A stretch of DNA of 64,000 nt from Halorussus caseinilyticus (GTDB lineage Archaea; Halobacteriota; Halobacteria; Halobacteriales; Haladaptataceae), in the NCBI RefSeq assembly GCF_029338395.1, contig NZ_CP119809.1, forward strand, positions 2,046,001 through 2,110,000, in the 5' to 3' direction. Shown here one piece after another: positions 8,297 through 52,873 of the stretch (the first letter of the stretch is position 1; each line of letters begins with the position of its first letter). Both the position numbers and the translations under genes were made by a program. The notes beneath the pieces are model-generated. The model did no database searches. It saw nothing but the letters and a program-made list of their open reading frames with translations, and was not told where the DNA came from.

Positions 8297-8320
8297 CGCT
8301 CAAATAATTCCCAACCTAAC

Positions 8321-8330
8321 TTTATAAATT
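8321..8330 (-). promoter_or_regulatory. TATA-like box for the RDD gene
   Basis: On the minus strand this reads aatttataaa, centred about 30 nt before the ATG at 8296. That spacing fits a leaderless haloarchaeal transcript starting next to the start codon. Confidence 0.5.
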
Positions 8331-8463
8331 GGGCGGAACTCCCACGTAGATATAAAAACGGATGCGGGTTCTCAGCGGTGACGTTCCGTGATAGCGCCAC
8401 CGAGAGAGCGTCACGCGCCGATAGATAGTAGAACACTTACAGGCAGAACACGGAGCAGTTCGT

Positions 8464-9531: not shown

Positions 9532-9535
9532 GAGT

Positions 9536-9961: not shown

Positions 9962-10202
9962 GAGCCCACAATTATTCTCTTTTCTGAATATTTGAACTAA
10001 TCGCCGGGGTCTAGCGATAGAACGGGGCGTTTTTATCCCGTGGAATAAATTGACAGACACAATAGGGTGCGCGGAACCGGAGTCGGGGCACGACCTGTAC
10101 TCGCCGAACCGACCCGCAGACGGTCGTAGCAGGTTCGTCCCGTCCGGCGGCACGAGTCGATTGCTCGAACGGATTCCGTCCCCCTCGGGAGTAATCTACC
10201 AC

Positions 10203-12092
10203 ATGACAGAGAAGCTATCACGACGGACGTTACTGGAGGTGTCCAGCGGACTCACGGCGGCGCTCGCCGGATGCTACAGCGTACAGGGCGACGCGAAAGC
10301 TATCGACGCCGCGACCCAGCAACTCGCCACGAGTACGGTGTACGACCAGATACACCGCGAACCGACCGAATCGGACCTCTCGACGCCGGGCACGGTCCCG
10401 GCGATTGCGATTACCAACGAAGGACGGTTCGAGTACACGAGCGACACGAGCGGATGGACGAAGGTACCGCTCGGGACGGAGACGAACCCGGTCCCCGGAA
10501 CGTCACACTTCGACGCGCTGACCGCCGACCGACTGTTCAGCGACACGGACGAACGGTCAGGTGCGCTCCTCATCGACGGCAACGGTGACTACAGGGCAGT
10601 TTCGTTCGTCACCGACGAAGTGTGGACGCACACCAGCGACGCGGGGACGGTACTTCAGTCGCTACTCGACTCCCTCGGACAGGCCCGGTCGAACGACAAC
10701 ATCGGCGAAATCAGAGTCGGGGCTGGCGCGTTCACGTTCGATACTCCGGTCGTGTTCTCCAACCACCGCGGGACGACGCTGACTGGGCAGTCGTTCCGTC
10801 AGGGGAACGGTCAGTCCGGCACCCGTTTCGTTCCCGGAACTTCCTTCCCGTCCGGTCGTGGTATCCTCGAATTCGGAAACGTCGGCGACGGGACCAATCC
10901 GGGCGATGGGGAGGCGACGCACCTCCGAAACCTCTACTTCGATTTAGGGGGTCTCGACGTAGCGGGGATATACAACTGGGCGCAGGACCGGGTTCGAACG
11001 ACCGACGTGAAGTCGGTGAACCCCGGACCGAACGGGAACGGCATCGTCTACATCGGGTCGTTCAACAGCAACATCGTGGACAGTTACTTCGACCAAGCGG
11101 CGTTCGTCAAGAACGTTCCGCGCTCGAAGGACACGAACTCGCTCAGGTTCCACAACGTGACGTTCAACACGAACAGTTCTACCTGTCCCCCGGTAGTCGT
11201 CTTCAGTCAAGGACTTCGGGTCACGAACGCACTGTTCAACGGCGTTGACGGTCCCAGTCTGAACGATGGACTCGCTGTCGTCTCGTCCGACGCGTCCGGG
11301 AAACTCGGCATTCTGGGGTCGGACTCGCGCGTCGACTCCTCCGACGTGGCGGGTGGAACGAACCGGATGCAAGTCACGGCCTCCGCGTTCGTCACGGGCG
11401 GCAGTAACGTGAACGTGTTCAACGGCGTGTCGAAGTCCCAGTTTTCCGGGTGCCGATTCAGCAGTTCGGGGAGAGCGTTCAACGACATTCACCACTGTTC
11501 CATCTCCAACTGTTCGTTTAGAGGCACGGGACGGGAGGCGATATACCGGTCCGGTAGCACCGGCGGCGCGGTTTCAACCATCACGGGATGTACGTTCAAG
11601 GACTTCGGAAGCAACGCTGGCGAACCCGCGATACGGTTCGACAGTTCCCAAGGCCACCGCGTGGTCGTAGCGAACAACGCGTTCCGGTCCACGAACGGGT
11701 CGGCCAACGACATCGTGTTGGAGAACAACGCGCGTCGCATCGTCGTCACCGGCAACTGGGCGAGGGACGGCATCGAAGCCACCGTCGGGAGTGCCACAAT
11801 CGGCGAACCGAGGTTCGTCGCACCCAAAGTCGTCGGCAACTCGACGAACCCCGTCGGATTCTCGCGGGCGACGCCGGTGCTACCGAGCGGAACGGGTAGC
11901 GCGAACGCGACCGCGAACAGGAACGCGCAGGGCGCGTGGGTGTACCACGAGGGCGGGAGCGGCGTGACCATCAACTCGTTCGGCACGACGACGACGCTGA
12001 ACACCGACCCCTCGCCGGTGTTCGTTCCGAGAGCCGGGGAAATCTGGTTCGAGAGTTCCGCTCCGTCCGCGTGGGACTGGTGGTGGGTGTAG
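10203..12092 (+). CDS. Tat lipoprotein with right-handed beta-helix fold
   Basis: About 629 residues from ATG 10203; the open frame extends upstream, but the signal peptide fixes this start. The N-terminus MTEKLSRRTLLEVSSG is a twin-arginine signal and AALAGC is a lipobox, so the mature protein is likely anchored by a lipid on Cys to the outer face of the membrane. The body shows repeating short strands rich in Asn, Gly, Ser and Val (FNSNIVDSYFDQAAFVKN, ITGCTFKDFGSNAG, VVANNAFRSTNG) typical of pectate-lyase-like parallel beta-helices. Such proteins bind or cleave polysaccharide; no catalytic residues could be assigned. The C-terminus ends WDWWWV, an unusually aromatic tail. It has a slightly lower GC content and more Asn/Ser than its neighbours, possibly from transfer. 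Confidence 0.78.
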   Translation: MTEKLSRRTLLEVSSGLTAALAGCYSVQGDAKAIDAATQQLATSTVYDQIHREPTESDLSTPGTVPAIAITNEGRFEYTSDTSGWTKVPLGTETNPVPGTSHFDALTADRLFSDTDERSGALLIDGNGDYRAVSFVTDEVWTHTSDAGTVLQSLLDSLGQARSNDNIGEIRVGAGAFTFDTPVVFSNHRGTTLTGQSFRQGNGQSGTRFVPGTSFPSGRGILEFGNVGDGTNPGDGEATHLRNLYFDLGGLDVAGIYNWAQDRVRTTDVKSVNPGPNGNGIVYIGSFNSNIVDSYFDQAAFVKNVPRSKDTNSLRFHNVTFNTNSSTCPPVVVFSQGLRVTNALFNGVDGPSLNDGLAVVSSDASGKLGILGSDSRVDSSDVAGGTNRMQVTASAFVTGGSNVNVFNGVSKSQFSGCRFSSSGRAFNDIHHCSISNCSFRGTGREAIYRSGSTGGAVSTITGCTFKDFGSNAGEPAIRFDSSQGHRVVVANNAFRSTNGSANDIVLENNARRIVVTGNWARDGIEATVGSATIGEPRFVAPKVVGNSTNPVGFSRATPVLPSGTGSANATANRNAQGAWVYHEGGSGVTINSFGTTTTLNTDPSPVFVPRAGEIWFESSAPSAWDWWWV

Positions 12093-12121
12093 CCGGGGTC
12101 ACTCTCGCGGGTCCGGACGAC

Positions 12122-12808
12122 TCACTCCATCGACGCCGCGTCCTCAACCAGATTCCGGACGTACTCCATCTCCTCGCGGTTCACGCCGTGGCTCATCCCC
12201 TCGTAGATGCGCTCGGTCACGTCGCCGCCGAGTTCCGTCAGCACGTCGCGGGTCTCGTGGACGCGCTCGACCGGGATGTGTGGGTCCCGGTCGCCGCAAC
12301 CGAGGAAAATCGGCGTCGCGCCGAGGTCGCCGTCGTAGTCGCGCGGGGTTCCCTCCGGGCCAATCAGTCCGCCGCTCAGGACCGCGAGTCCGCCGTACTC
12401 CTCGGCGTTGCGGGCGACGAACTCGCTGGCGAGGCAGGCACCCTGCGAGAACCCGACCAAGCAGGTCCGGTCGGCCGGAATCCCGGCGTCGGCGACGCGC
12501 TGGTGGACCCTGCCGAGGAAGTCGAGCGCCGACGACAGACTCGGTTCGTTGTCCTCGATTGGCGCGAGAAAGGAGTCGGGGTACCACGTCCGGCCGCGGG
12601 CCTGCGGCGCGAGGTAGGCCACGCCGTCGGCGTCGAACTCGGTGGCCATCTCCAGCATCCCCTCGGCGGTCGCTCCCCGGCCGTGGACGAACACGACCAC
12701 GGCGTCGGCGTCGGCGGTGGGTACGCCGTCCGCGACCGCGCCCGCGGTGGCGACCGGTTGGCCGTCGTGGGGGTCGGACGCGCCAGCGTGGGGATTGCTC
12801 GCCGTCAT
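12122..12808 (-). CDS. alpha/beta hydrolase (phospholipase/carboxylesterase type)
   Basis: A 228-residue serine hydrolase. It has the nucleophile elbow GFSQGACLA, the upstream oxyanion strand VVVFVHGRGATAEGM, the acid region GDRDPHIPVERV and the histidine in EGMSHGVNREEM. This is the carboxylesterase/dienelactone-hydrolase branch. The ATG at 12808 overlaps the stop of the VOC gene by four bases (ATGA), which sets the start and shows translational coupling. The same frame continues far upstream without a stop, but that part has no protein-like composition. Substrate unknown; pairing with a glyoxalase-fold dioxygenase suggests small-molecule or aromatic ring-cleavage chemistry. Confidence 0.88.
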   Translation of the reverse strand: MTASNPHAGASDPHDGQPVATAGAVADGVPTADADAVVVFVHGRGATAEGMLEMATEFDADGVAYLAPQARGRTWYPDSFLAPIEDNEPSLSSALDFLGRVHQRVADAGIPADRTCLVGFSQGACLASEFVARNAEEYGGLAVLSGGLIGPEGTPRDYDGDLGATPIFLGCGDRDPHIPVERVHETRDVLTELGGDVTERIYEGMSHGVNREEMEYVRNLVEDAASME

Positions 12809-38235: not shown

Positions 38236-39690
38236 CTACTCGTCGTCGCCGAGCGCCTGCCACGAGAGGCGCAGGTTCCGGGCCGCGCTGGTCTGGTCGA
38301 TGCGCCGGGCCGTCGTCCGGTTGGGCGCGTTCGCCAGCGTCTCGTCGTCCTCGGTAGCCACGGCGTCGAACGCCTCTGCGAGTTGGTCCAGCGTGTCCTT
38401 GCCCTCGATTTCGGTGGGTTCGGTCATCAGCGCCTCCGGGACGATTTCGGGCCACTTGGTCGTCGGCGGGTGGACGCCGTAGTCCAACATGCGCTTTGCG
38501 ACATCGGCGGCGTCTTGGTCGCCCGCGCTGGCGACGAACTCGTGGTGGAACGGTTCGAAGGGCACCTCGTAGTCGATTTGGCTGGCGAGGTAGTTGGCGT
38601 TCAGCACCGCCTTCGCCGAGGCGTCGGTCAGGCCCTCGTCGCCGAGGCGCGCGATGTAGGCGTAGGCCTTCACGAGGACGAGCCAGTTGCCGTGGAATCC
38701 GTGGACCTTCCCGAAGGTGTTCTCGGGGTCGAACAGTTCGTAGCCGCCGCCCTCCTCGGCCTCCCGGACCCGCGGGGCGGGCAGGAACTCCGCGAGGCGG
38801 TCGGTGACGCCGACTGGACCGGCACCGGGACCGCCGCCGCCGTGGGGCGTGGCGAACGTCTTGTGGACGTTGTAGTGCATGATGTCGAAGCCCATGTCGC
38901 CCGGCCGGGCCTGTCCGAGCAGTGCGTTGAGGTTCGCGCCGTCGTAGTAGAGCAGACCGCCCGCGTCGTGGACGATTTCGGCGATGTCCTCTATGTCGCG
39001 CTCGAACAGGCCGAGCGTGTTCGGGTTCGTGAGCATGAACAGCGCGGTCCGGTCGCTCGCGGCCGCTTCTAGCGCCTCCAAGTCCACGCGGCCGTCGTCG
39101 CCCGAGGGGAGTTCCACGACTTCGTAGCCCGCGAGGGCGGCGCTGGCGAAGTTGGTGCCGTGGGCGCTGTCGGGCACGATAATCTCGTCGCGCCGGTCGC
39201 CCTCACGGTTCTGCTCGTGGAACGCCTTGGCGACGAGGATGCCGGTGAACTCGCCCGCCGCGCCAGCTGGCGGTTGGAGGCTCACGGCGTCCATCCCGCC
39301 GATTCGCGCGAGGTAGTCCTGTAGCCCGTGCATGAGCGCGAGGCTCCCCTGCACGCTCCGCTCGGAGCGGTCGGGGTGGACCGCCGCGCTCGGAAGCGCG
39401 GCCACGTCCTCGGTGAACTTGGGGTTGTACTTCATCGTACAGCTACCGAGGGGATAGGGTCCGGACTCGACGCCGTAGTTCATCTGGCTCAGCCGCGTGT
39501 AGTGGCGCGCGAGTTCGGGTTCCTCCAGCGCGGGGAGTTCGAGGCTGTCGCGGGTCAACTCGTCGGGGAGCGGCGACTCGACTTCGACCTCCTCGCTGTT
39601 CTTCTCCGAGAGGAGCGGTTCGTACTGCCCCTCGGCGTCTTCGCCGCCCTTCGCCGCGCCGTCGGTCCATCGCGCTTGGTCGTAGTTCAT
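38236..39690 (-). CDS. gcvPB: glycine dehydrogenase (decarboxylating) subunit 2
   Basis: A 484-residue beta half of the two-subunit P protein. It decarboxylates glycine with PLP and passes the aminomethyl group to the lipoyl arm of GcvH. The PLP lysine is in MHYNVHKTFATPHGGGGPGA, VPDSAHGTNFASAALAGYEV is a phosphate/substrate segment, and YDGANLNALLGQARPGDMG follows. The start codon follows directly on the stop of gcvPA with no gap. With gcvPA it forms the downstream half of the split gcv cluster. Confidence 0.96.
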   Translation of the reverse strand: MNYDQARWTDGAAKGGEDAEGQYEPLLSEKNSEEVEVESPLPDELTRDSLELPALEEPELARHYTRLSQMNYGVESGPYPLGSCTMKYNPKFTEDVAALPSAAVHPDRSERSVQGSLALMHGLQDYLARIGGMDAVSLQPPAGAAGEFTGILVAKAFHEQNREGDRRDEIIVPDSAHGTNFASAALAGYEVVELPSGDDGRVDLEALEAAASDRTALFMLTNPNTLGLFERDIEDIAEIVHDAGGLLYYDGANLNALLGQARPGDMGFDIMHYNVHKTFATPHGGGGPGAGPVGVTDRLAEFLPAPRVREAEEGGGYELFDPENTFGKVHGFHGNWLVLVKAYAYIARLGDEGLTDASAKAVLNANYLASQIDYEVPFEPFHHEFVASAGDQDAADVAKRMLDYGVHPPTTKWPEIVPEALMTEPTEIEGKDTLDQLAEAFDAVATEDDETLANAPNRTTARRIDQTSAARNLRLSWQALGDDE

Positions 39691-41034
39691 CTAGGCCACC
39701 TCCTCGAAGGCCGCGACGAGTTCGTCCGCGGCGTGTTCGTTGCTGTCCGTGATGCACACCTGTACCTCGTGTTCGCCCACGGCGTGGACCGCGAAGCCCT
39801 CGGCTTCGAGGTCCGAAGCGACCGCACCCGCCGGTTGGTCGGTGTGGGCGACGAACTCCCGGAAGTGGTGTCGGTCGTGGACCGGCGCTTGGAGACCGGT
39901 CACGTCGTCCAAACGCTGAGCGAGGTCCGCCGCGAGGCGCACGCAGTCGTTGGCGAGGTCCACGAGTCCGTCGGGACCGAGGTAGGCCGCGTGGATGGCG
40001 GTTCGGAGCGCGACCCACGCCTGATTCGTGCAGATGTTGCTCGTGGCCCGCTCCCGGCGGATGTGCTGTTCGCGGGTCTGGAGCGTCAGCGTGTAGGTTC
40101 GCTTGTCGGCGGCGTCCTCGCTCGCGCCGACGAGACGGCCGGGGACCTGCCGCACGAAGTCCTCGCGGCAGGCGAACAGGCCGAGTCCCATCCCGTAGGC
40201 CGTGGGGAGACCGAGGGTCGCGGCGTCGCCGACCACCACGTCAGCGCCGACGCTCTCGGGTTCTCGAAGGACGGACAGGGCCACGGGGTCGGAACCGAGG
40301 CAGAACAGCGCGGCGTGGTCGTCGGCGAGGTCCCCGACCGCCGCCAGATGCTCCTCTATCGTCCCGCGGGTGGTCGGGTTCTCGACGTACACCATCACGG
40401 CGTCGTCGTCGATTGTCTCGGCCAGCGCGTCCGTATCGACGTTGCCGTCGTCGGTGGCGAACGTCTCGACGGAGAGACCCGCACCGTCGGTGTAGTTTTC
40501 GAGAACATCGCGGCGCTCGGCCAGCAGGTAGTCGGGCACCAGCACCCGGTCGCCGTCGGTCGAGCGGACGCGCGCCGCGAGCAGGGCCGCCTCCGCGAGC
40601 GCGGTCGCGTGGTCGTACATCGAGGCGTTGACGATGCCGAGACCGGTCAACTCGACCAGCATCGACTGGTACTCGAAGAGCGCTTGCAGGAACCCCTGCG
40701 TAATCTCGGGTTGGTACTGGGTGTAGGAGGTCAGAAACTCCGACCGGAGCGAGAGGTGGTCCACCAGCGAGGGCACGTAGTGTTCGTAGTGTCCCCGGCC
40801 GAGGAACTCGGTCAGGTCGTCGTTGCGCGAGAGCAGGCCCCGGACGTGGCGTTCTGCCGCCTGCTCGCTTCTGGCCTCGATACCGAACTCCCCGTCGAAC
40901 GCGACCGACTCGGGGATGTCGAACAGTTCCGTCACGTCGTCCGCGCCGACCGCCTCTAACATCGCCGCGGTCTCGTCGGCGGTGTGCGGTGCGTACGGGC
41001 TTCCCCGTTCCCCTGACTCGTGTCGTCCGCTCAT
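39691..41034 (-). CDS. gcvPA: glycine dehydrogenase (decarboxylating) subunit 1
   Basis: A 447-residue alpha half of the split P protein. [58 protein letters not shown] and YAGLTGYPGT-like [20 protein letters not shown] are family features. The protein lacks the PLP lysine, which sits in GcvPB. A TATA-like ttaaaa lies about 30 nt before its ATG on the minus strand, so it may have its own promoter. Upstream comes the CHAT island instead of gcvH. Confidence 0.96.
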
Positions 41035-41348
41035 GTGAACGGTGCTACGGAGCGTATCGTTTTAAGATGGAGGTATTCGGTCGCGCTTTCGGGGTAATTA
41101 CTGCGAAAGTCGTGGGAACTCGCTAGTGAACTGTGGTCGGACGCGGACGGACTGAGAAATAGTACGAAATGTTTTCTAATAATACATACCTATACGATTT
41201 TTTAAGCAAGGAATATGTCGTTCAGGACTATCTGAGGATATGCCTCAGAGAGCGACTCGACGCTGTTGCTCGGAGTGAAGCAATCAGTTGTCCGAGGGTT
41301 TTTAACGACTGCCTGTGACCACCGTCGTACAGTCGAGGGGTTCCAATC
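41035..41348. other. 314-nt AT-rich junction between gcvPA and the CHAT island
   Basis: Holds the gcvPA promoter side (ttaaaa near 41065), then AT-rich DNA (41150-41215: ttttctaataatacatacct) unlike the neighbours, and the promoter region of the CHAT gene (gggtttttaacg near 41296-41307, about 45 nt before the ATG). No gene or clear attachment repeat could be found. It marks the left edge of the insertion in the gcv operon. Confidence 0.5.
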
Positions 41349-43529
41349 ATGTCTCTCCATCCGCGATTCGAATTGCCGTCCGACGAGACCGGACTCGACA
41401 TCATCGACCCGGTAGAAACTCGCCACTTTTCGCTTCGCACGGACGAACCAGTGGACCCGACGCCCGCCGATACCGAGCCGTTCGCCTTTCCGGTCGATAC
41501 GGCCCGTCGTATTTCAGTCGGCGTGCTTCGTCTCCCGTACCTGCTTCCCGTAGACGTTCGGACGCCGGACGGCGACCCGTTACGGTCGGTCGATAGTCCG
41601 TCCTCGCACGAACTCGCGGCCGACGACTACTTGTTGGAACTCCACTCGCCTATCAAAGTGTATCTGCGCGTTTCGGGGCGCGTCCACGTCGAGGCGACCA
41701 CCGAGCGGGTCGTCTTCGAGTTCGGTGACGACGCCACTATCGACATCGGCGCGCGGTCGTACCACAGCGCTCCGGGCGCGACGATTACGGTCCCGGACGA
41801 CCCCGAAGCGATGATGAAAGCCGTCTCGACGTTCCCGTCGGCACTCAAGACGCTCTCGCCGGAGCGTGCGTGGCCGACCCTGCGCGGACATCCGCCGCGG
41901 GTCGAACGCGGCGACGAACTCGAAATTCCCTCGGACCTCGAGGTGCCCGACACGGGCATCCGGGTAACGGTGCCGTCCGAATACTGGGCGGTGTACACCG
42001 TTGCTCCGCTGGCGTACTACCTCGGCGCAGAGGTCGTCCCCGGCGAGAGCGCGCACGTAACTGCCGATACTGGGGCCGCACTCCATCTCGGTGACGAACC
42101 GGGAGAAATCGCCGACGCGACGGAGGCCCTACTCAAGCGGGTCTTCTTCCTCGACTGCGTGGTCAGGACCGAAGGCCTGTATCCCGACGAACTCCACGAG
42201 CGCAACGTCCTCGAAGCACGCGCGGACATTGACTTGGACTTCGCGGACCTCTACGAGGTCTCGCCCGCCGAGCGACTCGCGGTGTACCTCACCATCCCCG
42301 ACGAGGCAGTCGAAGCCATCGCTTCGCCGTGGCACCGCGTCACGCACACCGAGGCGAACCCCGGTCCCGAGGTGGCCGAACTCCTGCCCTACCTCGTCAA
42401 CGACCTGTCGCTGGTCCGGCCGAAGGTCGGAAGCGAGCGTTCGGCGGCGCAGTCCGAAATCGACGACGAGTTGGACGACGCGCTGGACTCGTTCCTCCGG
42501 CGGCCCGGCCCGAGCGTGGAGGCCGCCGCCATCGAGGATTTCTACCGGTCCGCGGACGCGCCGAACCTGCGTCGAGACGGCGAGTCGGGTAGCTCGGTCT
42601 CGGGCGTGCCGGACTTGGACGAGTACGTGACGCTCCCGGAGGTGGACGCGCTGGAACAGGCGTGGGTCGGCGACGGGACGCCGATTCGCGGGACGAAGCT
42701 ACTCCGGGAGGCGTTCGCCAACGAGACGCCGGAACCCTCCGACGGCACCATCGACATCGCGGTGGTCTGTAACGACGAGCGGATGCGCGAAGAATTGGCC
42801 TCTGTCGGCGACATCTACGGAAGTCGAGACGACGTGCCGGTCAGTCTCACCTCGAAAATCGGCGTCTCGACCGGCGAGTTGCGGGAACTACTCGCCGAGA
42901 ATTACGACGTGTTTCACTTCATCGGTCACATCGACGGGCAGGGCTTCGAGTGTCCCGACGGGATTTTGGACGCCGGAACTGTCGAGGAAGTTAATGCGAC
43001 GACTGTGCTTCTGAATGGTTGTCGCTCACACGACCAAGGCATCGAGTTGGTGAAAGCGGGTGCGAGTGCGGCTATCGTGAGTCTCGCGGATTTGTTCAAT
43101 TCCGGCGCTGTTGAAATCGGCGAAACCATCACTCGCTTGCTCTATCACGGATTTGATGTCGGTACTACAATGAAGATAATTCGAGAATATACTTCGATTG
43201 GCGACCGATACGTAGTTATCGGCAATCCCGGCGTGCCCGTAGTACAATGTGATGGATTTCTGCCGATACTCTGCCACATAACTACGAAACCCACCGAAAG
43301 TGAGTCACTTAATGTTCAACCAATAGCATATCCGGTTCCAGAAATAGGAATCGGCACTGTTTTTGAGCCAGAAATATTTGAAACCAATTATTATCATTTA
43401 GCCATTGGAGAACACGCCGATATTAACATCACACGTGATAAACTAAAAAGTTGGATTTCGGAAGATTACGAACCTGTAATTTTTAATGGAGAGCTGATTT
43501 GGGGAAGTGAACTACTGACTGAAATGTAA
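41349..43529 (+). CDS. full-length CHAT caspase-like protease with variable C-terminal tail (locus A)
   Basis: A 726-residue protein. Residues 1-430 are a haloarchaea-specific N-terminal region (VGARSYH-like GARSYHSAPGATITVPDDP; LRGHPPRVERGDELEI; APLAYYLGAEVVPG). CHAT follows, with catalytic His527 (VFHFIGHIDGQGF) and Cys558 (LLNGCRSHDQG), 31 residues apart as in caspase-like dyads. Residues from about 615 form a tail (YVVIGNPGVP to the end) with AT-rich codon use unlike the rest. The tail motif ELIWGSE recurs in modified form in the other three tails. The last part of the gene is duplicated at 43735-44634 with a different tail. The tail meets a 43-residue convergent gene one base after the stop. 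It may be a defence or conflict protease; that is inference. Confidence 0.85.
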   Translation: MSLHPRFELPSDETGLDIIDPVETRHFSLRTDEPVDPTPADTEPFAFPVDTARRISVGVLRLPYLLPVDVRTPDGDPLRSVDSPSSHELAADDYLLELHSPIKVYLRVSGRVHVEATTERVVFEFGDDATIDIGARSYHSAPGATITVPDDPEAMMKAVSTFPSALKTLSPERAWPTLRGHPPRVERGDELEIPSDLEVPDTGIRVTVPSEYWAVYTVAPLAYYLGAEVVPGESAHVTADTGAALHLGDEPGEIADATEALLKRVFFLDCVVRTEGLYPDELHERNVLEARADIDLDFADLYEVSPAERLAVYLTIPDEAVEAIASPWHRVTHTEANPGPEVAELLPYLVNDLSLVRPKVGSERSAAQSEIDDELDDALDSFLRRPGPSVEAAAIEDFYRSADAPNLRRDGESGSSVSGVPDLDEYVTLPEVDALEQAWVGDGTPIRGTKLLREAFANETPEPSDGTIDIAVVCNDERMREELASVGDIYGSRDDVPVSLTSKIGVSTGELRELLAENYDVFHFIGHIDGQGFECPDGILDAGTVEEVNATTVLLNGCRSHDQGIELVKAGASAAIVSLADLFNSGAVEIGETITRLLYHGFDVGTTMKIIREYTSIGDRYVVIGNPGVPVVQCDGFLPILCHITTKPTESESLNVQPIAYPVPEIGIGTVFEPEIFETNYYHLAIGEHADINITRDKLKSWISEDYEPVIFNGELIWGSELLTEM

Positions 43530-43530
43530 T

Positions 43531-43662
43531 CTACGGTCCGACCTTCGCACAACACTTTTCGATTTCCACCCCTAAATAAAATAAAGAGATTGACATAAAC
43601 CAAGCGACTTCAACTAGTTTCGGACTCTCCCTAATCCATTTTGTGATGTCAAACTGTGCCAT
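43531..43662 (-). CDS. 43-residue hydrophobic peptide gene paired with the locus A full-length tail
   Basis: Minus-strand ATG 43662, stop TAG 43531-43533, one base from the CHAT stop. MAQFDITKWIRESPKLVEVA leads into WFMSISLFYLGVEIEKCCAK and ends VGP. One membrane-spanning or amphipathic helix is likely. It is 43 residues long and shares MAQFD, W, ESP and CCAK-x-GP with the peptide at 44603-44734. No known family is certain; it resembles short haloarchaeal proteins ending in GP that I recall as DUF7503. Confidence 0.65.
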   Translation of the reverse strand: MAQFDITKWIRESPKLVEVAWFMSISLFYLGVEIEKCCAKVGP

Positions 43663-43734
43663 CGTATATTTTGCTAATGGACGTAGCACCTTCCAATTTT
43701 CCACTAAAAATAACAAATTAATAATGTTTGGCTG

Positions 43735-44634
43735 TGGGTCGGCGACGGGACGCCGATTCGCGGGACGAAGCTACTCCGGGAGGCGTTCGCCAACGAGACG
43801 CCGGAACCCTCCGACGGCACCATCGACATCGCGGTGGTCTGTAACGACGAGCGGATGCGCGAAGAATTGGCCTCTGTCGGCGACATCTACGGAAGTCGAG
43901 ACGACGTACCGGCCGACGTGACCTCGAAAATCGGCGTCTCGACCGGCGAGTTGCGGGAACTACTCGCCGAGAATTACGACGTGTTTCACTTCATCGGTCA
44001 CATCGACGGGCAGGGCTTCGAGTGTCCTGACGGGATTCTGGATGCTAAGACTGTCGAAGAGGTCAACGCGACGACTGTGCTTTTGAACGGTTGTCGGTCG
44101 CACGACCAAGGCGTCGAGTTGGTGAAAGCGGGTGCGAGTGCGGCTATCGTGAGTCTCGCGGATTTGTTCAATTCCGGCGCTGTTGAAATCGGTAAGACGC
44201 TATCTCGGTTGCTCTATCACGGATTTGGTATCGGTGCCGCGATGAAGATTATTCGTGAGTATACTTCGATTGGCAACAGGTACGTAGTTGTGGGTGACCC
44301 GCTATCGCTAGTCGCACAATGTGAAAGTGGAATACCGACACTATGCCACATCAGCAAACGTTCTGGAGAAAGCTCACGAATTAACATTAGTCCACATGCG
44401 TATCCGACTCAAAAGCGTGGAATAGGGTCTAGTTTTAGTCCTTCATTCTTCGATGGTGACCAATATTATATCGCCGTAGGGAAGTACGACGACCTAACGA
44501 CTACACGGGATGCAGTTGAAAAATGGACTGCAACCGATTACGACCCTTTAGTTGTGAATCGAGAATTAGTCTGGAGTGGAGCATGGTTCCAGCAAGACGA
44601 AACTACGGCCCCGATTTCGCGCAACAACCCGTAA
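43735..44634 (+). pseudogene. silent CHAT cassette with alternative tail (locus A)
   Basis: From 43734 the DNA is nearly identical to 42662 onward (offset 1072), covering WVGDGTPIRGTKLLREAF, the CHAT His (VFHFIGHIDGQGF) and Cys (LLNGCRSHDQG) and on to YTSIGNRYVVVGD. Then the tail diverges (LSLVAQCESGIPTLCHISKR, ending with ELVWSGAWFQQ). The frame is open from 43714, but the copy has no start codon before a GTG at 43834 and no visible promoter, so it looks like a donor cassette. Its 3' end overlaps the convergent peptide gene by 32 nt. Confidence 0.75.
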
Positions 44635-44734
44635 TCGTTATCCACTGCTCGCTTAGAGCTAGCGTGACTACCCAAACCACTTGTAATAGCCGAGGGGACT
44701 CGTAAAACCAATCACTGAAATCAAACTGTGCCAT
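44603..44734 (-). CDS. 43-residue hydrophobic peptide gene paired with the locus A silent tail
   Basis: Minus-strand ATG 44734, TAG at 44603-44605, overlapping the end of the cassette. MAQFDFSDWFYESPRLLQVV continues WVVTLALSEQWITITGCCAK and ends SGP. Sixteen or more positions match the peptide at 43531-43662, including the start and the C-terminal CCAK-x-GP, but the middle differs. It keeps an intact frame although the cassette beside it is silent. Confidence 0.62.
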   Translation of the reverse strand: MAQFDFSDWFYESPRLLQVVWVVTLALSEQWITITGCCAKSGP

Positions 44735-44882
44735 CGTACGTGATGCTACCAACTGTAGCAACTTCCGACTTTCTACTATAGTTTATTTTACTACAATTCT
44801 AACTATTGAGAATCCCGTATTTACGTTCCAGACAAATCTATAACGTGTGGTAGTAATTGTATCTACCACGATTAAGAGGGAA

Positions 44883-44892
44883 ATTTTATAAA
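44883..44892 (+). promoter_or_regulatory. TATA box for the DUF7504-like gene of locus A
   Basis: attttataaa lies 35-43 nt before ATG 44926 and only 14-22 nt before ATG 44905, which favours the 44926 start. Confidence 0.5.
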
Positions 44893-44925
44893 TTTCCTCT
44901 GAAAATGACAGTCATACCAACACCT

Positions 44926-45687
44926 ATGTCGTCCCCAACTCCCCGCGATTTCACACGCGGGTCCGACGAATCGCCACCCGCCGACGACCTCACGGACTTT
45001 CTCGGTCTCCTGAACGAGCTGAAATCCACCGGCTGTAACCTGCTCGTCGTCGGCGATGCACCGCGCGAGCTGTTCACGCAGGCGAGTTCCCGGATGTTCG
45101 GGGACGACGATACGGTCCGCTATCGGACGCTCGCAGTTACGGACGCGACTCCCGAGAGCATCGCCGAGCGACTTCCCGACCCGAGCGAGTCGCCGCGGCC
45201 CGTCGGCGAGACGACCCACGTCCTCAACCACGCCGGGGCGCTCCGGTCGGTCACGACCGCGACGGACCCGAACACTCCGCCGGACCTCGCTGGCGTCAAG
45301 GAGACCCGTATCGCGGACCCGCAGTTGGCCGGACTTCAGGCCGCGGTGGTCGAAGCTATCGAGGAGTTCGCAACTCGCGCTGGCTCGCTCCACCCCGGGG
45401 ACCTCCGGATTGGAATCGACTCGCTGGAGCCGCTTTTGGACTTCTACGGCGAAGACGTAGTTCGGCGCTGTCTGCGCATCGTCGGGGGCTACGTCCGCGA
45501 CTACGACGCGATGGCCCACTACGTTTTGCCGAAACCGTACGATAGCGACGTTGTACAGACCTTCGCCGACGACATGGACGCTATCGTAGAAATTCGGTTG
45601 TCCGACTCGGCCGACGACGGTCGAGTCGGCGAGCAACGGTGGCACGTCCCGAGTCGGGACCTGTCCGTCGGTTGGGCGTCGATTTGA
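44926..45687 (+). CDS. DUF7504-like haloarchaeal protein (RecA-like fold without Walker A), locus A
   Basis: A 253-residue protein from ATG 44926 (the frame can also start at 44905). ELKSTGCNLLVVGDAPRELF resembles the first strand and loop of a KaiC/RecA-like domain but lacks a GKT P-loop, so nucleotide binding is doubtful. It is clearly paralogous to the protein at 48600-49289: GCNLLVVG/GSNILVTG, LRIGIDSLEPLL/LRVGVDSLFPLV, MAHYVLP/MAHYHLR. It follows the CHAT cassette on the same strand in both loci. It is also convergent with gcvH, 10 nt away. Its role is unknown; the neighbour pattern suggests a partner of the CHAT protein. Confidence 0.75.
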   Translation: MSSPTPRDFTRGSDESPPADDLTDFLGLLNELKSTGCNLLVVGDAPRELFTQASSRMFGDDDTVRYRTLAVTDATPESIAERLPDPSESPRPVGETTHVLNHAGALRSVTTATDPNTPPDLAGVKETRIADPQLAGLQAAVVEAIEEFATRAGSLHPGDLRIGIDSLEPLLDFYGEDVVRRCLRIVGGYVRDYDAMAHYVLPKPYDSDVVQTFADDMDAIVEIRLSDSADDGRVGEQRWHVPSRDLSVGWASI

Positions 45688-45697
45688 ACCGACGCGA

Positions 45698-46081
45698 CTA
45701 CTCTATCTGTTCTCGGTACTCGTCGGCGGTCAGCAACTCGTCCAAGCCGCTGTCGTCGGCCAACTCCACTTCGAGCATCCACCCCTCGCCGAAGGGGTCG
45801 TCGTTGACGAGTTCGGGCTGGTCTTCGAGCGCGTCGTTGACCGCCGTGACGGTGCCGTTGACCGGCGCGTAGAGGTCCGAGACCGCCTTGATGGACTCCA
45901 CGACGCCGAACTCCTCGTCTTGGGTGAGTTCGTCGCCCTCGCTCGGGAGTTCGACGAACACCACGTCGCCGAGTTCGTCCTGCGCGAAGTCGGAGATGCC
46001 GACTCTCGCGGTGCCGTCGGTCGTCTCTACCCACTCGTGTTCGCTACTGTACTTTCGGTCTTCAGGGACTTCGAAGCTCAT
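45698..46081 (-). CDS. gcvH: glycine cleavage system H protein
   Basis: A 127-residue lipoyl carrier that shuttles the aminomethyl group between the P and T proteins. The lipoylated lysine is in [38 protein letters not shown] starts it, and [18 protein letters not shown] is the conserved beta-sandwich. It begins 2 nt after gcvT. In many haloarchaea gcvPA follows; here a 4.7-kb CHAT island intervenes. Confidence 0.96.
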
Positions 46082-46083
46082 TG

Positions 46084-47175
46084 TTAGTCACTCAGGAATG
46101 GCGTGTTCGCAATCTTTGCTTTTTTCGACTGGCCGCGGACCATCACGCGGACGACGGTCCCGGCGTCGGCGTACTCCGAGGGGACGTAACCCAGCGCGAT
46201 GGGTTCGTTCAGCGTCGGACTCATCGTTCCGCTGGTGACTTCGCCGATAACGTGGTCGTCGGTGTCGGTCACGTCGTAGCCGTGGCGGGCCACCCCGCGG
46301 TCCACGAGTTTGATGCCGACGAACTCCTCGTCTGTTCCCTCCGCATCGACGCCTTCGAGGGCGTCCCGGCCGACGAACTCGGTGTCGAGTTTCACCGTCC
46401 ACCCGACGCCCGCCTCGTAGGGGTTTCGGGGGTCCTCGTCGGCGTCGAAGTCTTGGCCCGACAGCAGGAAGCCCATCTCCATCCGGAGGGTGTCGCGGGC
46501 ACCGAGCCCGCAGGGCTGGCAGTCGAACGACTCCCAGACCGCTTGGGCCGCCTCGACGGGGACGATAATCTCGAAGCCGTCCTCACCGGTGTAGCCGGTT
46601 CGGGCGGTCCAACACGACACGCCGTCGAACTCGACGTACTTGCCGTCGAATTTCGAGAGGTCCGTCACCGACCCGTCGGCTACGTCCGCCACGAGGTCCG
46701 GAGCGTCGGGACCCTGCACCGCGTACATCGCGTACTCGTCGGTGACGTTCTCGACGGTGGCGTCGAGGTCCCACTCGTCGCGGTGGTCGGTCCACCGGCG
46801 GTGCATCTGTTCGTCGTGGCCCGCGTTGGGGACGAAGAGGTACTCGGCGTCCTCGTCATCGGGCAGTCGATAGACCACGGTGTCGTCCAGAATCGTCCCC
46901 TCCTCGTCGGTTATCATCGAGTAGTGGGAGTCGCCGCGGCCGAGTTCGGTCACGTCGTTGGACGTGAGCTTCTGCATCAGTTCGCGGGCGTCCGGGCCGC
47001 CGACTTGGATTTGGCCCATGTGAGACACGTCGAAGATGCCCGCCTCCTCGCGGACCGCGGCGTGTTCGGCCTTGATGGAGTCGAACTCCACGGGCATGTC
47101 CCACCCGCCGAACTCGGTGAACGTCGCTCCCTCGCCAGCGTGAACGTCGCGCAGTGGCGGCTTCCGAAGCGTCAT
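46084..47175 (-). CDS. gcvT: glycine cleavage system T protein (aminomethyltransferase)
   Basis: A 363-residue folate-dependent aminomethyltransferase that releases ammonia and forms methylene-tetrahydrofolate. It starts [40 protein letters not shown] and [20 protein letters not shown] are the family N-terminal motifs, [18 protein letters not shown] the folate site, and [20 protein letters not shown] the C-terminal barrel. First gene of the gcvT-gcvH pair. Confidence 0.96.
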
Positions 47176-48599: not shown

Positions 48600-49289
48600 T
48601 CAGAGTTCCATCCACGGGGTCTTGGCGTCGATTTTCGGCGCGTACCAGCGCTGTTCGGGGTTCTGGCGCGGTCGCTTGCGGAGCTCGACGCGCGCGTCGA
48701 ACAGCGGCATGAGTCGCTCGACCACTTCGTCGTCGGCCGGGACGCGGAGGTGGTAGTGAGCCATCCCGTGAACTCCGCGGACCGTCGCCCCGAGCGTCCG
48801 CAGGGCGTGTTCGGCCGCCGAGCGGTCCTCTTCGACCAGCGGAAACAGCGAATCGACGCCCACGCGGAGTTCCGCGGGGTCGAGACCCTCGGCCTTCTCG
48901 TCGTAGAACGCGATTGCGGACTGAATCTCGTCACAGAGCTGTCGGGCGTCGTCGGACCCGAGCGGGTCCAACCCGGCGGTGACGCCGCCCGCGGTGGCCG
49001 GGACCGACCGCTCGCCGCGGCGCTGGTCGATAATCCACGTCGTGGGGTCGTCGAAGGCGGCGTCCTCGGGGAGTCGGGACTCGGCGCTGGTTATCGTCTG
49101 GTCGGTCAGCGCGAGTATCCGAAAGCGGCGCTTCTCGCGCCCGTAGAGGAATCTAGAGGCTCGCGCGGAAACCTCGTCGGGTACCTCACCGGTGACGAGG
49201 ATGTTGCTCCCGACCTGCTTGAGGTTGGCGAGCCACTTCGTGAAGCGAGGGTTCGCTCCGCTCCCGCGAAACCGTAGCTCTGAGTCCAT
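48600..49289 (-). CDS. DUF7504-like haloarchaeal protein (RecA-like fold without Walker A), locus B
   Basis: A 229-residue paralogue of the protein at 44926-45687. LANLKQVGSNILVTGEVPDE aligns with LNELKSTGCNLLVVGDAPRE, and AELRVGVDSLFPLVEE and VHGMAHYHLRVPADDEVVER align as well. The C-terminus differs (ending KTPWMEL). It is downstream of the CHAT cassette on the same strand, as in locus A. A TATA-like ttttat about 30 nt upstream indicates its own promoter. No P-loop is present. Confidence 0.76.
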   Translation of the reverse strand: MDSELRFRGSGANPRFTKWLANLKQVGSNILVTGEVPDEVSARASRFLYGREKRRFRILALTDQTITSAESRLPEDAAFDDPTTWIIDQRRGERSVPATAGGVTAGLDPLGSDDARQLCDEIQSAIAFYDEKAEGLDPAELRVGVDSLFPLVEEDRSAAEHALRTLGATVRGVHGMAHYHLRVPADDEVVERLMPLFDARVELRKRPRQNPEQRWYAPKIDAKTPWMEL

Positions 49290-49521
49290 TTGTCAAGGTT
49301 GTCGGACGTAGCTTAGATAAAATTTCCGGAAGGTGAGGCGGCAGAGGGCCGAGAATCGGGACGTTGCCGCCGCACCGTCTCGGTCCTCGAAACCGATTCG
49401 AGACGGATAATTCACTAGCTATGGGCATGTTTTAACTAATCTCTGCTAGAATCCACCTGTAAGGTCATCTCGATAACTGACACCACTTTTTACAATATAT
49501 TTCATAGTTAGAATACTTTAG

Positions 49522-49531
49522 AAAAATATAA
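49522..49531 (+). promoter_or_regulatory. TATA box of the locus B peptide gene (silent-cassette side)
   Basis: aaaaatataa lies 28-37 nt before ATG 49559. The same element in the same context occurs at 50563-50572. The DNA around it (tttcatagttagaatacttt) is identical in both copies. Confidence 0.55.
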
Positions 49532-49558
49532 TTTCAGATAGCAGAGTGTTATGCATGC

Positions 49559-49693
49559 ATGTCGAAGAACACCATGCTCGACACGCTCGCACAGCACCCG
49601 CGACTAATCGGCTTCCTGTTCACCACCGGGATGGTTCTGGTACAGGCAGGGAATGTCGCGGCGAACAATACAGGAATGACGAACGGACCATAA
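49559..49693 (+). CDS. 44-residue hydrophobic peptide gene paired with the locus B silent tail
   Basis: ATG 49559 to TAA 49691-49693, four bases from the cassette stop on the other strand. MSKNTMLDTLAQHPRLIGFL continues FTTGMVLVQAGNVAANNTGM and ends TNGP. One hydrophobic helix (RLIGFLFTTGMVLVQAG). The first 36 residues match the peptide at 50600 in all but a few places, while the last eight differ. It resembles short haloarchaeal proteins I recall as DUF7503; this is not checked. Confidence 0.7.
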   Translation: MSKNTMLDTLAQHPRLIGFLFTTGMVLVQAGNVAANNTGMTNGP

Positions 49694-49697
49694 GCCA

Positions 49698-50396
49698 CTA
49701 CAGGTCAGAAAGCGAAATTTCGTTGCTCCAGTAGAGTTTGTTATCAACTTCAACAGGTGCAAATTGAACATCTAAAATTGAGTTCAGCTCTTTTTCACTT
49801 ACGCGAAACGTATCGAGTAAGCCAGAGGCCAGATGGCGAGTCGTCTCTTCATCCATGAACTTCGCCAAGGTTCCGAGTCGATAGGACGAACTAGGGTACG
49901 AATAATGGCTAATCAGATACTCGCTTCCAACCCTTTTAATGTCGAACTTTACTAAACCACCGCTATCACCCTCACAAAGTGACAACCCGCCATCCCCAAT
50001 AGTGACGTACTCGATGGACACCAGCACCTCCTTCACGGCGATGCTCAGCGCCGAGCGCAACGAGAACCCTGAGTTCAGCAACCGCGCTAGCGCCCGACCC
50101 ACCTTCGTCGCGGCCGAGTTGACCACCTCCGCGAGCGTCACCACGCCGCCGGTACTCCCCTTCTCGACCAGTTTCGCGCCTTGCTCGTAAGACCGGCACG
50201 CATTCAGTAGGAACGCCTCGACGCCCACCGACTCCAGCGAGTCGGCGTCGAGGTGGCCGTCAACACACCGGAAACCTTCCTCGTCGGCGTGGCCGATGTA
50301 GTGCAAGAAGTCCGCCGAGGACTCCAGCAAATCGGCGAGTTCGGCCGTGGTCAACTCCTCGTGAATCGTCACGTCGTAGTTCACGAAGTCGCACAA
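49698..50396 (-). pseudogene. silent CHAT cassette with alternative tail (locus B)
   Basis: Its minus-strand DNA is nearly identical to the CHAT part of the full gene at 50735-52873, from DFVNYDVTIHEELT through His (FLHYIGHADEEGF) and Cys (LLNACRSYEQG) to IEYVTIGDGGL. It then switches to a different tail (SLCEGDSGGLVKFDIKRV, ending VDNKLYWSNEISLSDL). The homologous part begins inside the domain (near 50391), where upstream DNA turns AT-rich; the only start is a TTG. No promoter is visible. It probably serves as a donor of tail sequence. Confidence 0.75.
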
Positions 50397-50562
50397 GTCG
50401 AATATACACGCCCTAACTTTTTTAGATGCTAAATGAAAGCAAAATAAATAATTTGTATTCCAAACGGACGTTTTAACTAATTGCTACTAGAACCAATATA
50501 TTAGGTCAACTCAACAACCGATACCACTTTTTACAATATATTTCATAGTTAGAATACTTTAG

Positions 50563-50572
50563 AAAAATATAA
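50563..50572 (+). promoter_or_regulatory. TATA box of the locus B peptide gene (full-length side)
   Basis: aaaaatataa lies 28-37 nt before ATG 50600; an exact copy of the element at 49522-49531. Confidence 0.55.
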
Positions 50573-50599
50573 TTTCAGATAGCAGAGTGTTATGCATGC

Positions 50600-50734
50600 A
50601 TGTCGAAGACAACCATGCTTGACACGCTCGCACAGCACCCACGACTAATCGGTTTCCTATTCACCACCGGAATGGTTCTGGCACAAACAGGAAACGCCGC
50701 GGCGAATCAAATCGGTGCAAATCCTGGTCCCTAA
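50600..50734 (+). CDS. 44-residue hydrophobic peptide gene paired with the locus B full-length tail
   Basis: ATG 50600 to TAA 50732-50734. The CHAT stop on the opposite strand begins at the very next base (50735). MSKTTMLDTLAQHPRLIGFL continues FTTGMVLAQTGNAAANQIGA and ends NPGP. Same hydrophobic helix as its neighbour copy, different last eight residues. All four peptides of this kind in the window end in Gly-Pro. Confidence 0.7.
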   Translation: MSKTTMLDTLAQHPRLIGFLFTTGMVLAQTGNAAANQIGANPGP

Positions 50735-52873
50735 TTACAAAACTTCGGGAAGGTCATTACCCCAATAGAGTTCTTCCTCTATGAGTACAGGGACGATATT
50801 TTCATCGTTGTTTATGAAATCCATTATTTCGTCCTTTGTGAATTGAAAGGGCCTAAGCGAGCCAGATGATAGATAATTAGTTGATGACTCTTCTGCTATA
50901 CTATTTGCTATAGTTCCAAGACCATGCGACGAGCAAGGATGAGCATAAGGGACGAAAATATATTGATTCTCCTCCTCTCCCTCCTCAATACGGTACGAAA
51001 TAGGACATCCGTTGTCGTTTTCACACAACATCAACCCGCCATCCCCAATAGTGACGTACTCGATGGACACCAGTACCTCCTTCTCGGCGATACTCAGCGC
51101 CGAGCGCAACGAGAACCCTGAGTTCAGCAACCGCGCTAGCGCCCGACCCACCTTCGTCGCGGCCGAGTTGACCACCTCCGCGAGCGTCACCACGCCGCCG
51201 GTACTCCCCTTCTCGACCAGCTTCGCGCCTTGCTCGTAAGACCGGCACGCATTCAGTAGGAACGCCTCGACGCCCACCGACTCCAGCGAGTCGGCGTCGA
51301 GGTGGCCGTCAACACACCGGAACCCCTCGTCGTCGGCGTGGCCGATGTAGTGCAAGAAGTCCGCCGAGGATTCGAGTAGGTCTCCAAGTTCCGCGACGGT
51401 CAACTCCTCGTGAATCGTCACGTCGTAGTTCACGAAGTCGCGCAGGCCGTAGAACTCGCCGACGACGCTCTCTTCGTCCATCTCCGGGTCGTTGCAGACG
51501 ACGTGGACCTCGATGTCCGAGTCGTCCGGCGGCGTGCGCTCGGCCTGCCGACGCAGGGACGCTATCGTCACCTTGTTCGCGTTGATGGGGTAGCCCTCGC
51601 CCACCCACGCGTGTTCGATGGTCTCTGCCGGTTCGACCCGAAACATCTCGTCGTCCGTGGTCCACGTCTCGCGCGTGTTCCGGGTCAGTGCGTCGTCGCG
51701 CCCGCCCCGCGTCGAAGCGTCGTCGCTCGCGCTCCGGGTGAAGTCGCCCGAGGCGACGGCCGACCGCGTGAACTCGTCCAGTTCCTCGAACGTCGGCTCG
51801 ACCGACTGGTCGGTCGGGTCCTCGGGCGTCCGCAACAGCGCGAGTTCGTGGGCGAAGTACGGGAGCGCCGCCGCGTTCCCGGCCGTCGGCACCACGTCGG
51901 TCGTGAGGTGCCAGTCCAGTACGTGCGGTTCGAGCGCGTCGAACGGCACCGAGAGGTACCGAGGCAGTTGCTCGGCCAGCGGTCGGCCGTAGAGGTCCGG
52001 GAAGTCGAGGTCCACCGCGGGTTCGACCTGCTCGCGCTCGTGGAGTTCGACCGGGTAGTAGCCCTCGGTCCGAGTCAGGCAGTCGAGGAAGAACACCTGC
52101 TTCAACACGCGGTTGACCGTCGCCTCGTAGCCACCCGCGCCGTCGAGGTCGTACTCGAAGTCGCCCGCGACGAGTCGGGGGTCGGACCCGGCGACGAGTT
52201 CGGCACCGAGGTAGTACGCCAGCGACGCGCTCGGATAGACGTGTTCTCGGTCGGGCGGCAGGACGATTTCGACGCCCGTGTCGGGAGCGTCGATGCCGTC
52301 CGAGACAGCAAACGAGTCGCCGCGCTCGACCCGCGGCGGATGTCCGCGCAGGGTCGGAAACGACCGCTCGCACGAGGTGGTCTTGAGCGCGGACCCGAAC
52401 AGCGAAACCGCCGCCATCGCGTCTTCCACGTCGTCGGTCACGGTAATCGTCCCGAGCGGTCGCTCGTGGAACGACCGCGCGCCGACCCGAACCCGACGAC
52501 GCTCGCCGAAACTGGCGGTGACGGACTCGTCGCCCGGCCGTATCTCGAAGGGACCGTCCACGACGAGGTAGAGTTTCATCGGCGTACTCTGGAGTTCGAC
52601 GAGGTAGCGGCCAGCACCGAACGTCTGGGTCTCGCTGGTGGTCGCGTCGGCGAGCATTTCGCCGGTGTGTCGCCGGACGACGGTCGAGACCAGTTTCGGA
52701 ATCTCGACCGCCGAGGCTTCGAACCCCACCGCAACGTCCACGGGAAAGTAGAAACCGTCGGTCGATTCGGACTCCGGTTCGACGGACTCGGGCGTGTACA
52801 ACTCGAACCGGGCGTTCTCGATTGGGTCGAAGACGCCGAGACCCGAACGGTGGTCGAGTACGTCGAACTCCAT
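50735..52873 (-). CDS. full-length CHAT caspase-like protease with variable C-terminal tail (locus B)
   Basis: A 712-residue paralogue of the locus A protein. ATG 52873 (MEFDVLDHRSGLGVFDPIEN) is chosen because it aligns with the locus A start; the frame runs on upstream through non-protein-like sequence. Shared N-terminal blocks: VGARSFHERPLGTITVTDD, LRGHPPRVERGD, ASLAYYLGAEL, VFFLDCLTRTEGYYPVELHE. Catalytic His512 (FLHYIGHADDEGF) and Cys543 (LLNACRSYEQG). Tail from about residue 605 (GLMLCENDNGCPISYRIEE to EEELYWGNDLPEVL) with more A/T than the rest. Divergent from a gene at 53039. Confidence 0.85.
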   Translation of the reverse strand: MEFDVLDHRSGLGVFDPIENARFELYTPESVEPESESTDGFYFPVDVAVGFEASAVEIPKLVSTVVRRHTGEMLADATTSETQTFGAGRYLVELQSTPMKLYLVVDGPFEIRPGDESVTASFGERRRVRVGARSFHERPLGTITVTDDVEDAMAAVSLFGSALKTTSCERSFPTLRGHPPRVERGDSFAVSDGIDAPDTGVEIVLPPDREHVYPSASLAYYLGAELVAGSDPRLVAGDFEYDLDGAGGYEATVNRVLKQVFFLDCLTRTEGYYPVELHEREQVEPAVDLDFPDLYGRPLAEQLPRYLSVPFDALEPHVLDWHLTTDVVPTAGNAAALPYFAHELALLRTPEDPTDQSVEPTFEELDEFTRSAVASGDFTRSASDDASTRGGRDDALTRNTRETWTTDDEMFRVEPAETIEHAWVGEGYPINANKVTIASLRRQAERTPPDDSDIEVHVVCNDPEMDEESVVGEFYGLRDFVNYDVTIHEELTVAELGDLLESSADFLHYIGHADDEGFRCVDGHLDADSLESVGVEAFLLNACRSYEQGAKLVEKGSTGGVVTLAEVVNSAATKVGRALARLLNSGFSLRSALSIAEKEVLVSIEYVTIGDGGLMLCENDNGCPISYRIEEGEEENQYIFVPYAHPCSSHGLGTIANSIAEESSTNYLSSGSLRPFQFTKDEIMDFINNDENIVPVLIEEELYWGNDLPEVL

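What the first reader, a model, noticed from the sequence alone, without database searches (positions are those of the whole stretch)
41035..45697. CHAT island inserted inside the glycine-cleavage operon
gcvT-gcvH (47175-45698) and gcvPA-gcvPB (41034-38236) lie on the same strand in operon order but are split by 4.7 kb holding the opposite-strand CHAT island. In many haloarchaea these four genes are contiguous. The edges are AT-rich, and gcvPA seems to have gained its own TATA-like element near 41065. Locus B lies 1.4 kb beyond gcvT, so the operon halves sit close to both copies.
Basis: partly seen in the sequence, partly recalled or inferred. Interest (0 to 1): 0.75.

Follow-up and report, generated by a model that had tools for sequence, protein, structure and literature searches.

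The report
Haloarchaeal caspase-like locus with swappable tail
The 4.7-kb stretch between the glycine-cleavage genes of this salt-loving archaeon is an optional module built around a caspase-like protein whose last ~120 amino acids, together with a tiny neighbouring gene, are exchanged as a cassette between species, which suggests a recognition system, while the glycine genes themselves are not harmed.

Summary
Observation confirmed. In Halorussus, gcvTH and gcvPAB flank an opposite-strand CHAT island. Of 17 other species, 11 have an empty site (127-706 nt), 5 carry the island and 1 has unrelated genes there. It is not an operon disruption: the gcvPA TATA box exists in all 18 genomes, empty or not, and gcvTH/gcvPAB separation is common across Halobacteriales. 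No direct repeats, TIRs or recombinase were found.

The island is one of about 11 modules in this genome, of a family found in 78 of 88 halobacterial genomes: a KaiC-fold DUF7504 protein, a caspase-fold CHAT protein (invariant His/Cys), and an unannotated, convergent 43-46-aa DUF7503 gene that abuts the CHAT stop codon. The CHAT C-terminal domain is hypervariable. Two species 95% identical across island and flanks are about 43% identical over one ~600-nt block (tail + DUF7503). Islands A and B here each keep a second core+tail+DUF7503 copy; at B the active and displaced tails belong to different trans-species allele classes. The pattern resembles Rhs C-terminal displacement, but with homologous tails on a caspase-like protein.

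Best reading: a polymorphic recognition module exchanged by homologous recombination. Exchange is well supported; function is inferred.

The parts
38236..41034 (-). gcvPA-gcvPB (left flank)
   Evidence: Pfam GDC-P / GcvP2_C
41060..41065 (-). TATA box of gcvPA (TTAAAA on the minus strand), ancestral, not gained
   Evidence: present in all 18 genomes, empty or occupied
41349..43529 (+). CHAT_A, 726 aa: N-terminal beta-rich region (1-430), caspase-like CHAT core (about 438-605; H527, C558), hypervariable C-terminal domain (about 606-726; 43164-43529)
43531..43662 (-). DUF7503-like micro-gene A1 (43 aa), convergent with CHAT_A, stop codons 1 nt apart
43734..44634 (+). displaced copy: CHAT core fragment (94% aa identical to the active core) + alternative tail (44% identical); no N-terminal region, no good start
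44603..44734 (-). DUF7503-like micro-gene A2 (43 aa) belonging to the displaced tail
44905..45687 (+). DUF7504_A (260 aa), KaiC/RecA fold
   Evidence: PF24336 E=3e-46; AF2 + Foldseek
45698..47175 (-). gcvT-gcvH (right flank)
   Evidence: Pfam
48600..49289 (-). DUF7504_B of locus B
   Evidence: PF24336 E=1e-50
49559..49693 (+). DUF7503 micro-gene B2 (44 aa) of the displaced B tail
   Evidence: PF24335 61 bits, over cut-off
49698..50396 (-). displaced core+tail copy of locus B, tail of the G006/G009/G014/G011 class
50600..50734 (+). DUF7503 micro-gene B1 (44 aa); differs from B2 mainly in the last ~9 residues
   Evidence: PF24335 55 bits
50735..52873 (-). CHAT_B (712 aa), active tail of the G007 class

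Best explanation
Island A is a DUF7504-CHAT-DUF7503 module sitting between two independent transcription units (gcvTH and gcvPAB), where it does no evident damage. The module's working part is a caspase-fold CHAT protein with a fixed N-terminal region and catalytic core and a hypervariable C-terminal domain. A convergent DUF7503 micro-gene of 43-46 aa abuts it tail-to-tail. CHAT tail and DUF7503 (at least its C-terminal end) form one low-GC block that homologous recombination in the flanking conserved sequence exchanges between strains and species. Sometimes the old block stays downstream as a displaced copy, as at both A and B here. Shown by sequence: site polymorphism, module composition, block exchange, displaced copies, caspase-like and KaiC-like folds. 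Inferred: the CHAT tail is a recognition domain, DUF7503 (a hydrophobic stretch followed by a short variable end that closes in GP) is its cognate ligand or inhibitor, and a mismatch or foreign ligand releases or blocks proteolysis, i.e. a non-self recognition or defence system under diversifying selection.
For: Site: 11 empty, 6 occupied, 1 with other genes among 18 Halorussus genomes; the same holds for B, with a clean ~4.2-kb insertion in G014 against G003. Exchange: G016 vs G002 are ~95% identical over island and flanks but ~43% over ~600 nt covering tail + DUF7503, 93/92/37% aa for N/core/tail, while at another locus the same two genomes are 95/98/93. Similar sharp blocks: own C3/C4 paralogs, two MAGs, and Haladaptatus pairs. 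Trees: at B the own active tail groups with G007 (100/99), and active+displaced as sisters is rejected (p=1e-4); at A tails give G002+G004 (93/92), which N+core rejects (p=4e-5). Low tail GC at exchanged loci: GC3 about 50% against 82-87% in the N-region for A and B. DUF7503: convergent downstream of 65 of 84 Halorussus CHAT genes and 45 of 55 in other genera, stop codons usually within 13 nt; DUF7503 similarity tracks tail similarity beyond core (partial r 0.24-0.35, 0 of 1000 permutations). Folds: separase, SAVED-CHAT, gingipain, Craspase, caspases; KaiC/RecA. H527 and C558 invariant in 42 homologs.
Against: No functional data of any kind. Displaced copies were seen only in this genome (2 of 84 Halorussus genes), so a standing store of silent cassettes is not general. 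The tail also evolves fast without swapping (C1e group). Tail and DUF7503 are neighbours, so their co-variation may be linkage alone. No PADLOC hit, no virus or phage copy, and no defence-island context was established. CHAT_A itself gets no Pfam hit; assignment to CHAT rests on relatives and fold.
Confidence: 0.6

Rival explanations
1. The tail plus DUF7503 is a toxin-immunity-like or effector pair: the CHAT tail delivers or activates a toxic function and DUF7503 is the matching membrane immunity or effector, swapped as a unit as in Rhs/CDI loci.
For: Displaced core+tail copies each with their own micro-gene, near-identical core over ~500 nt and AT-rich tips: the same anatomy as Rhs main/orphan loci (PMC2935791, PMC3967940).
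Against: Tails are all homologous versions of one domain rather than unrelated toxin domains; no secretion or delivery gene was seen; the pairing is convergent, not co-transcribed; each genome keeps 4-13 modules.
Confidence: 0.2
2. Ordinary fast evolution: the C-terminal domain is weakly constrained or under positive selection in place, and no cassette exchange is needed.
For: Tails are less conserved than cores at every locus, including C1e, where the decline is gradual.
Against: Sharp block edges with 95% flanks and ~43% inside, including the intergenic DNA; tail trees that contradict core trees; foreign-like GC3.
Confidence: 0.1
3. The island is a mobile element that transposed into the gcv operon and forced gcvPA to acquire a promoter.
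For: Presence/absence at an exact site; multiple copies per genome.
Against: No transposase/integrase, TIR or target duplication; TATA box at all empty sites; the six copies at this site have their own deep tree, with the topology of the rpoB tree of the same six genomes, which fits one old insertion with repeated losses.
Confidence: 0.05

Closest known systems
Rhs C-terminal displacement / orphan Rhs-CT (Jackson 2009, PMC2935791; Koskiniemi 2014, PMC3967940)
   Same: Conserved core, exchangeable C-terminus, displaced core+tip fragments downstream without start signals, a GC difference between core and tip, a small gene linked to each tip.
   Different: Caspase-fold protein in archaea with no secretion part seen; tails are homologous to each other; the linked gene is convergent; at most one displaced copy per locus.
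Meningococcal tpsA/tpsC 3' domain exchange (PMC3848433)
   Same: 3' end of a gene replaced by recombination with downstream cassettes.
   Different: Secreted growth-inhibition protein; not a protease; no convergent micro-gene.
CHAT proteases (Craspase TPR-CHAT/Csx29, SAVED-CHAT) and separase
   Same: Caspase-like fold with His/Cys.
   Different: No CRISPR or SAVED partner found here; different N-terminal region plus a hypervariable C-terminal domain.
Polymorphic peptide-receptor loci such as comQXP or Rap-Phr/arbitrium (from memory, a lead only)
   Same: Hypervariable receptor part next to a ~45-aa hydrophobic precursor with a short variable end.
   Different: No secretion, processing or peptide activity shown; receptor would be a caspase-like protein.

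Membership tests
CHAT (PF12770) | profile match | tested here: inconclusive
   CHAT_A: no Pfam hit; 18 of 42 homologs match at E<=0.1 (best 2e-5); one paralog in this genome reaches the cut-off
CHAT (PF12770) | caspase-like fold | tested here: met
   AF2 pLDDT 86.7, pTM 0.87; Foldseek to separase, SAVED-CHAT, gingipain, Craspase, caspases
CHAT (PF12770) | His-Cys catalytic dyad | tested here: met
   H527 and C558 invariant in 42 aligned homologs
CHAT (PF12770) | peptidase activity | not testable with these tools
   needs biochemistry
DUF7504 (PF24336) | profile match | tested here: met
   3e-46 and 1e-50
DUF7503 (PF24335) | profile match | tested here: met
   B1 and B2 over the cut-off; A1 and A2 gave no Pfam hit and are joined only by a profile built here that included them, plus position and the GP ending
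Rhs/CDI polymorphic toxin | conserved core with displaced C-terminal fragments | tested here: met
Rhs/CDI polymorphic toxin | mutually non-homologous toxin tips | tested here: not met
   tails align as one domain
Rhs/CDI polymorphic toxin | secretion/delivery and toxin activity | not tested
   no secretion gene was noticed in the island; activity needs experiments
Transposon / IS / integron cassette | recombinase, terminal or direct repeats | tested here: not met
Known anti-phage system (PADLOC-DB) | match to a described defence protein | tested here: not met

The most novel reading that the evidence does not exclude
Haloarchaea carry a large family of peptide-gated caspase-like proteases: each CHAT protein is matched by its own hypervariable tail to a short secreted or membrane DUF7503 peptide encoded tail-to-tail with it, and the pair is exchanged as an allele between species. 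It would be an archaeal kin-recognition or immune system with a polymorphic receptor and ligand.
Probability: 0.25. Interest if true: 0.9.

Novelty: new variant of a known kind. Interest (0 to 1): 0.7.

Why it matters
Caspase-like activity was reported in Haloferax volcanii while archaeal genomes were said to lack clear caspase homologues (PMC3615174). This family gives a caspase-fold candidate in most halobacterial genomes (78 of 88), with a very common micro-gene partner, and shows C-terminal displacement, best known from secreted bacterial toxins, in a caspase-like protein of archaea. DUF7504 occurs in H. volcanii (control), and one control genome, not named by the tool, passes the DUF7503 cut-off, so the question may be testable in a standard laboratory strain; a CHAT member in H. 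volcanii was not checked. Searches for DUF7503, DUF7504 and for CHAT domain with haloarchaea in the held literature gave no paper.

Tried and rejected
Edge direct repeats and inverted repeats: chance level. Promoter gain for gcvPA: rejected. Apparent near-identical CHAT pairs within contigs C3 and C4 with different C-termini: these are redundant contig ends of the assembly with small indels, not biology; the real comparison is C3 against C4. Inter-locus tail donors: the best tail matches at A and B are mostly at the same locus in other species, so exchange looks mostly allelic (the nucleotide half of that script failed and was not rerun). Viral or phage origin of CHAT: none found. A strong conflict between the island tree and the species tree was suspected, but the six-genome rpoB tree has the same topology as the island, so no horizontal origin of island A is claimed; the first rpoB tree was wrong because four loci were on the wrong strand, and was redone. 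The sigma-70 promoter scan is not meaningful for archaea. The order-wide gcv spacings were typed by hand and cover only genomes listed in both tables.
Full report
1. What is there. gcvPB-gcvPA (38236-41034) and gcvT-gcvH (47175-45698) lie on the minus strand, and 41035-45697 holds plus-strand genes: CHAT_A (41349-43529), a second copy of only its C-terminal part (43734-44634) and a DUF7504 gene (44905-45687). gcvPA is single-copy in the genome. Locus B (48600-52873, minus strand) has the same parts.

2. Is it an insertion? Eighteen genomes of the genus were compared; records in a public collection name it Halorussus. Eleven have an empty gcvH-gcvPA interval of 127-706 nt, six including this one hold CHAT + DUF7504 at the same site and orientation, and one holds 6.5 kb of unrelated genes. 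Locus B is present in six and absent in others; between G003 and G014 it is a clean ~4.2-kb difference. On the 17-genome rpoB tree the A label needs at least 5 changes. Among the six occupied genomes, CHAT N+core gives ((own,G011),(G016,G002),(G010,G004)) with full support, the same topology as rpoB for these six. An old insertion followed by repeated loss is therefore enough; replacement by recombination through the gcv flanks is not excluded.

3. Was the operon broken? No sign of it. The gcvPA ATG is preceded at 25-30 nt by TTAAAA/TTAAAG in all 18 genomes, occupied or empty. The halves were probably already two transcription units (inferred from the conserved box), and the island sits between the gcvPA promoter and the gcvH stop. 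One distant MAG has a CHAT gene just downstream of gcvPB (L221). No direct or terminal repeats were found.

4. The module. The family occurs in 78 of 88 halobacterial genomes and 30 of 37 genera, 1-15 copies each, on chromosomes and plasmids, and was not found in viral contigs or phage records. This genome has 13 listed full-length copies, two of which are repeats of redundant contig ends, so about 11. The AF2 model of CHAT_A (pLDDT 86.7) matches separase, SAVED-CHAT, gingipain R, Craspase TPR-CHAT and caspases, and H527 and C558 are invariant in 42 homologs. DUF7504 has a KaiC/RecA fold; I see no intact Walker A motif in the sequence (my reading, not a computed result). A third gene had been missed: a 43-46-aa DUF7503-like ORF on the opposite strand, its stop codon usually within 13 nt of the CHAT stop, next to 65 of 84 Halorussus CHAT genes and 45 of 55 in other genera. 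Most genes lacking it belong to one group, C1a, whose tails have near-native GC (63.7%).

5. The tail. Across 81 full-length CHAT genes the last ~120 residues are far more variable than N-region and core. The decisive case is G016 vs G002: 93% and 92% identity in N-region and core, 37% in the tail. At DNA level they are ~95% identical over island and flanks except one ~600-nt block, tail plus the DUF7503 interval, at ~43%. At locus C1a the same two genomes are 95/98/93 with no block, and at C2a a block of 75-85% is flanked by 93-98%. Similar blocks occur between the own C3 and C4 paralogs, between two MAGs, and between Haladaptatus species. Tail GC3 at A and B averages about 50% against 82-87% in the N-region.

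6. Displaced tails. Island A and locus B each carry a second unit: core fragment (94-95% identical to the active core), another tail (44-49%), and its own DUF7503. At B the active tail groups with G007 (100/99), the displaced one with G006/G009/G014/G011, and sisterhood of the two is rejected (p=1e-4). At A the tails support G002+G004 (93/92), which N+core rejects (p=4e-5). In B the variable block runs through the CHAT tail into the last ~9 codons of DUF7503, after which the two copies are nearly identical. Such displaced units were seen nowhere else in the sample.

7. How it may work. The anatomy says that one block, the CHAT C-terminal domain plus the end of DUF7503, is replaced while the rest is kept, with core and downstream DNA as homology arms. 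DUF7503 similarity follows tail similarity beyond what core similarity predicts (partial r 0.24-0.35, 0 of 1000 permutations), though neighbours co-inherit anyway. The most economical functional reading is a matched pair: a variable sensor domain on a caspase-like protease and a short hydrophobic partner with a variable GP-terminated end. Whether the partner is a secreted peptide, a membrane protein, an inhibitor or a substrate is open; the sequence (hydrophobic stretch, often small residues such as VAS/VAA before the end) would allow a signal-peptide-like precursor, but this was not tested.

8. Comparison with the known. The exchange pattern is that of Rhs C-terminal displacement, where existing tips are displaced by acquired ones and left downstream with a piece of core (PMC2935791), and orphan tips can be recombined onto the main gene (PMC3967940). 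It differs in protein type, in having homologous tails and in the convergent micro-gene. It is not filed as a member.

9. Verdict. Observation confirmed; insertion site polymorphism confirmed; operon disruption and promoter gain not supported. The unexpected result is the exchangeable tail/DUF7503 block of a widespread haloarchaeal caspase-fold family. Interest 0.7; exchange is well supported, function is a hypothesis.

Noticed in passing
own genome contigs C3 (185 kb) and C4 (151 kb): Both contigs carry the same ~9-11-kb stretch twice at ~142.3-kb and ~116.5-kb spacing with 100% identity apart from 1-3-base indels: over-assembled circular plasmids, probably not real duplicates.
   Followed up: partly
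L221 (MAG QS_1_68_17), 992-6094: A CHAT_B-like gene lies directly downstream of gcvPA-gcvPB in a distant genus, at a different position and orientation from island A.
   Followed up: no
L032 (G005), 6220-12793 in gcv orientation: In G005 the same gcvH-gcvPA junction holds 6.5 kb of unrelated genes (HAD-like hydrolase, GTP-binding translation-factor-like, DnaJ-like by eye): the junction tolerates other insertions.
   Followed up: partly
P_C1a group loci (e.g. L062, L108, L109): This CHAT group mostly lacks DUF7503 and has tails of near-native GC; the G002/G016 pair at this locus shows no swap. Presence of DUF7503 may go with tail exchange.
   Followed up: partly
L198 and L210 (Haladaptatus): Two full CHAT genes in tandem; the second pair shows a variable tail block (53-65%) followed by 90-95% identical downstream DNA.
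   Followed up: partly
G000:C1:1298405-1298515 and C1:2504191-2504310: Two DUF7503 matches over the Pfam cut-off with no CHAT gene listed next to them: possible solo DUF7503 genes.
   Followed up: no
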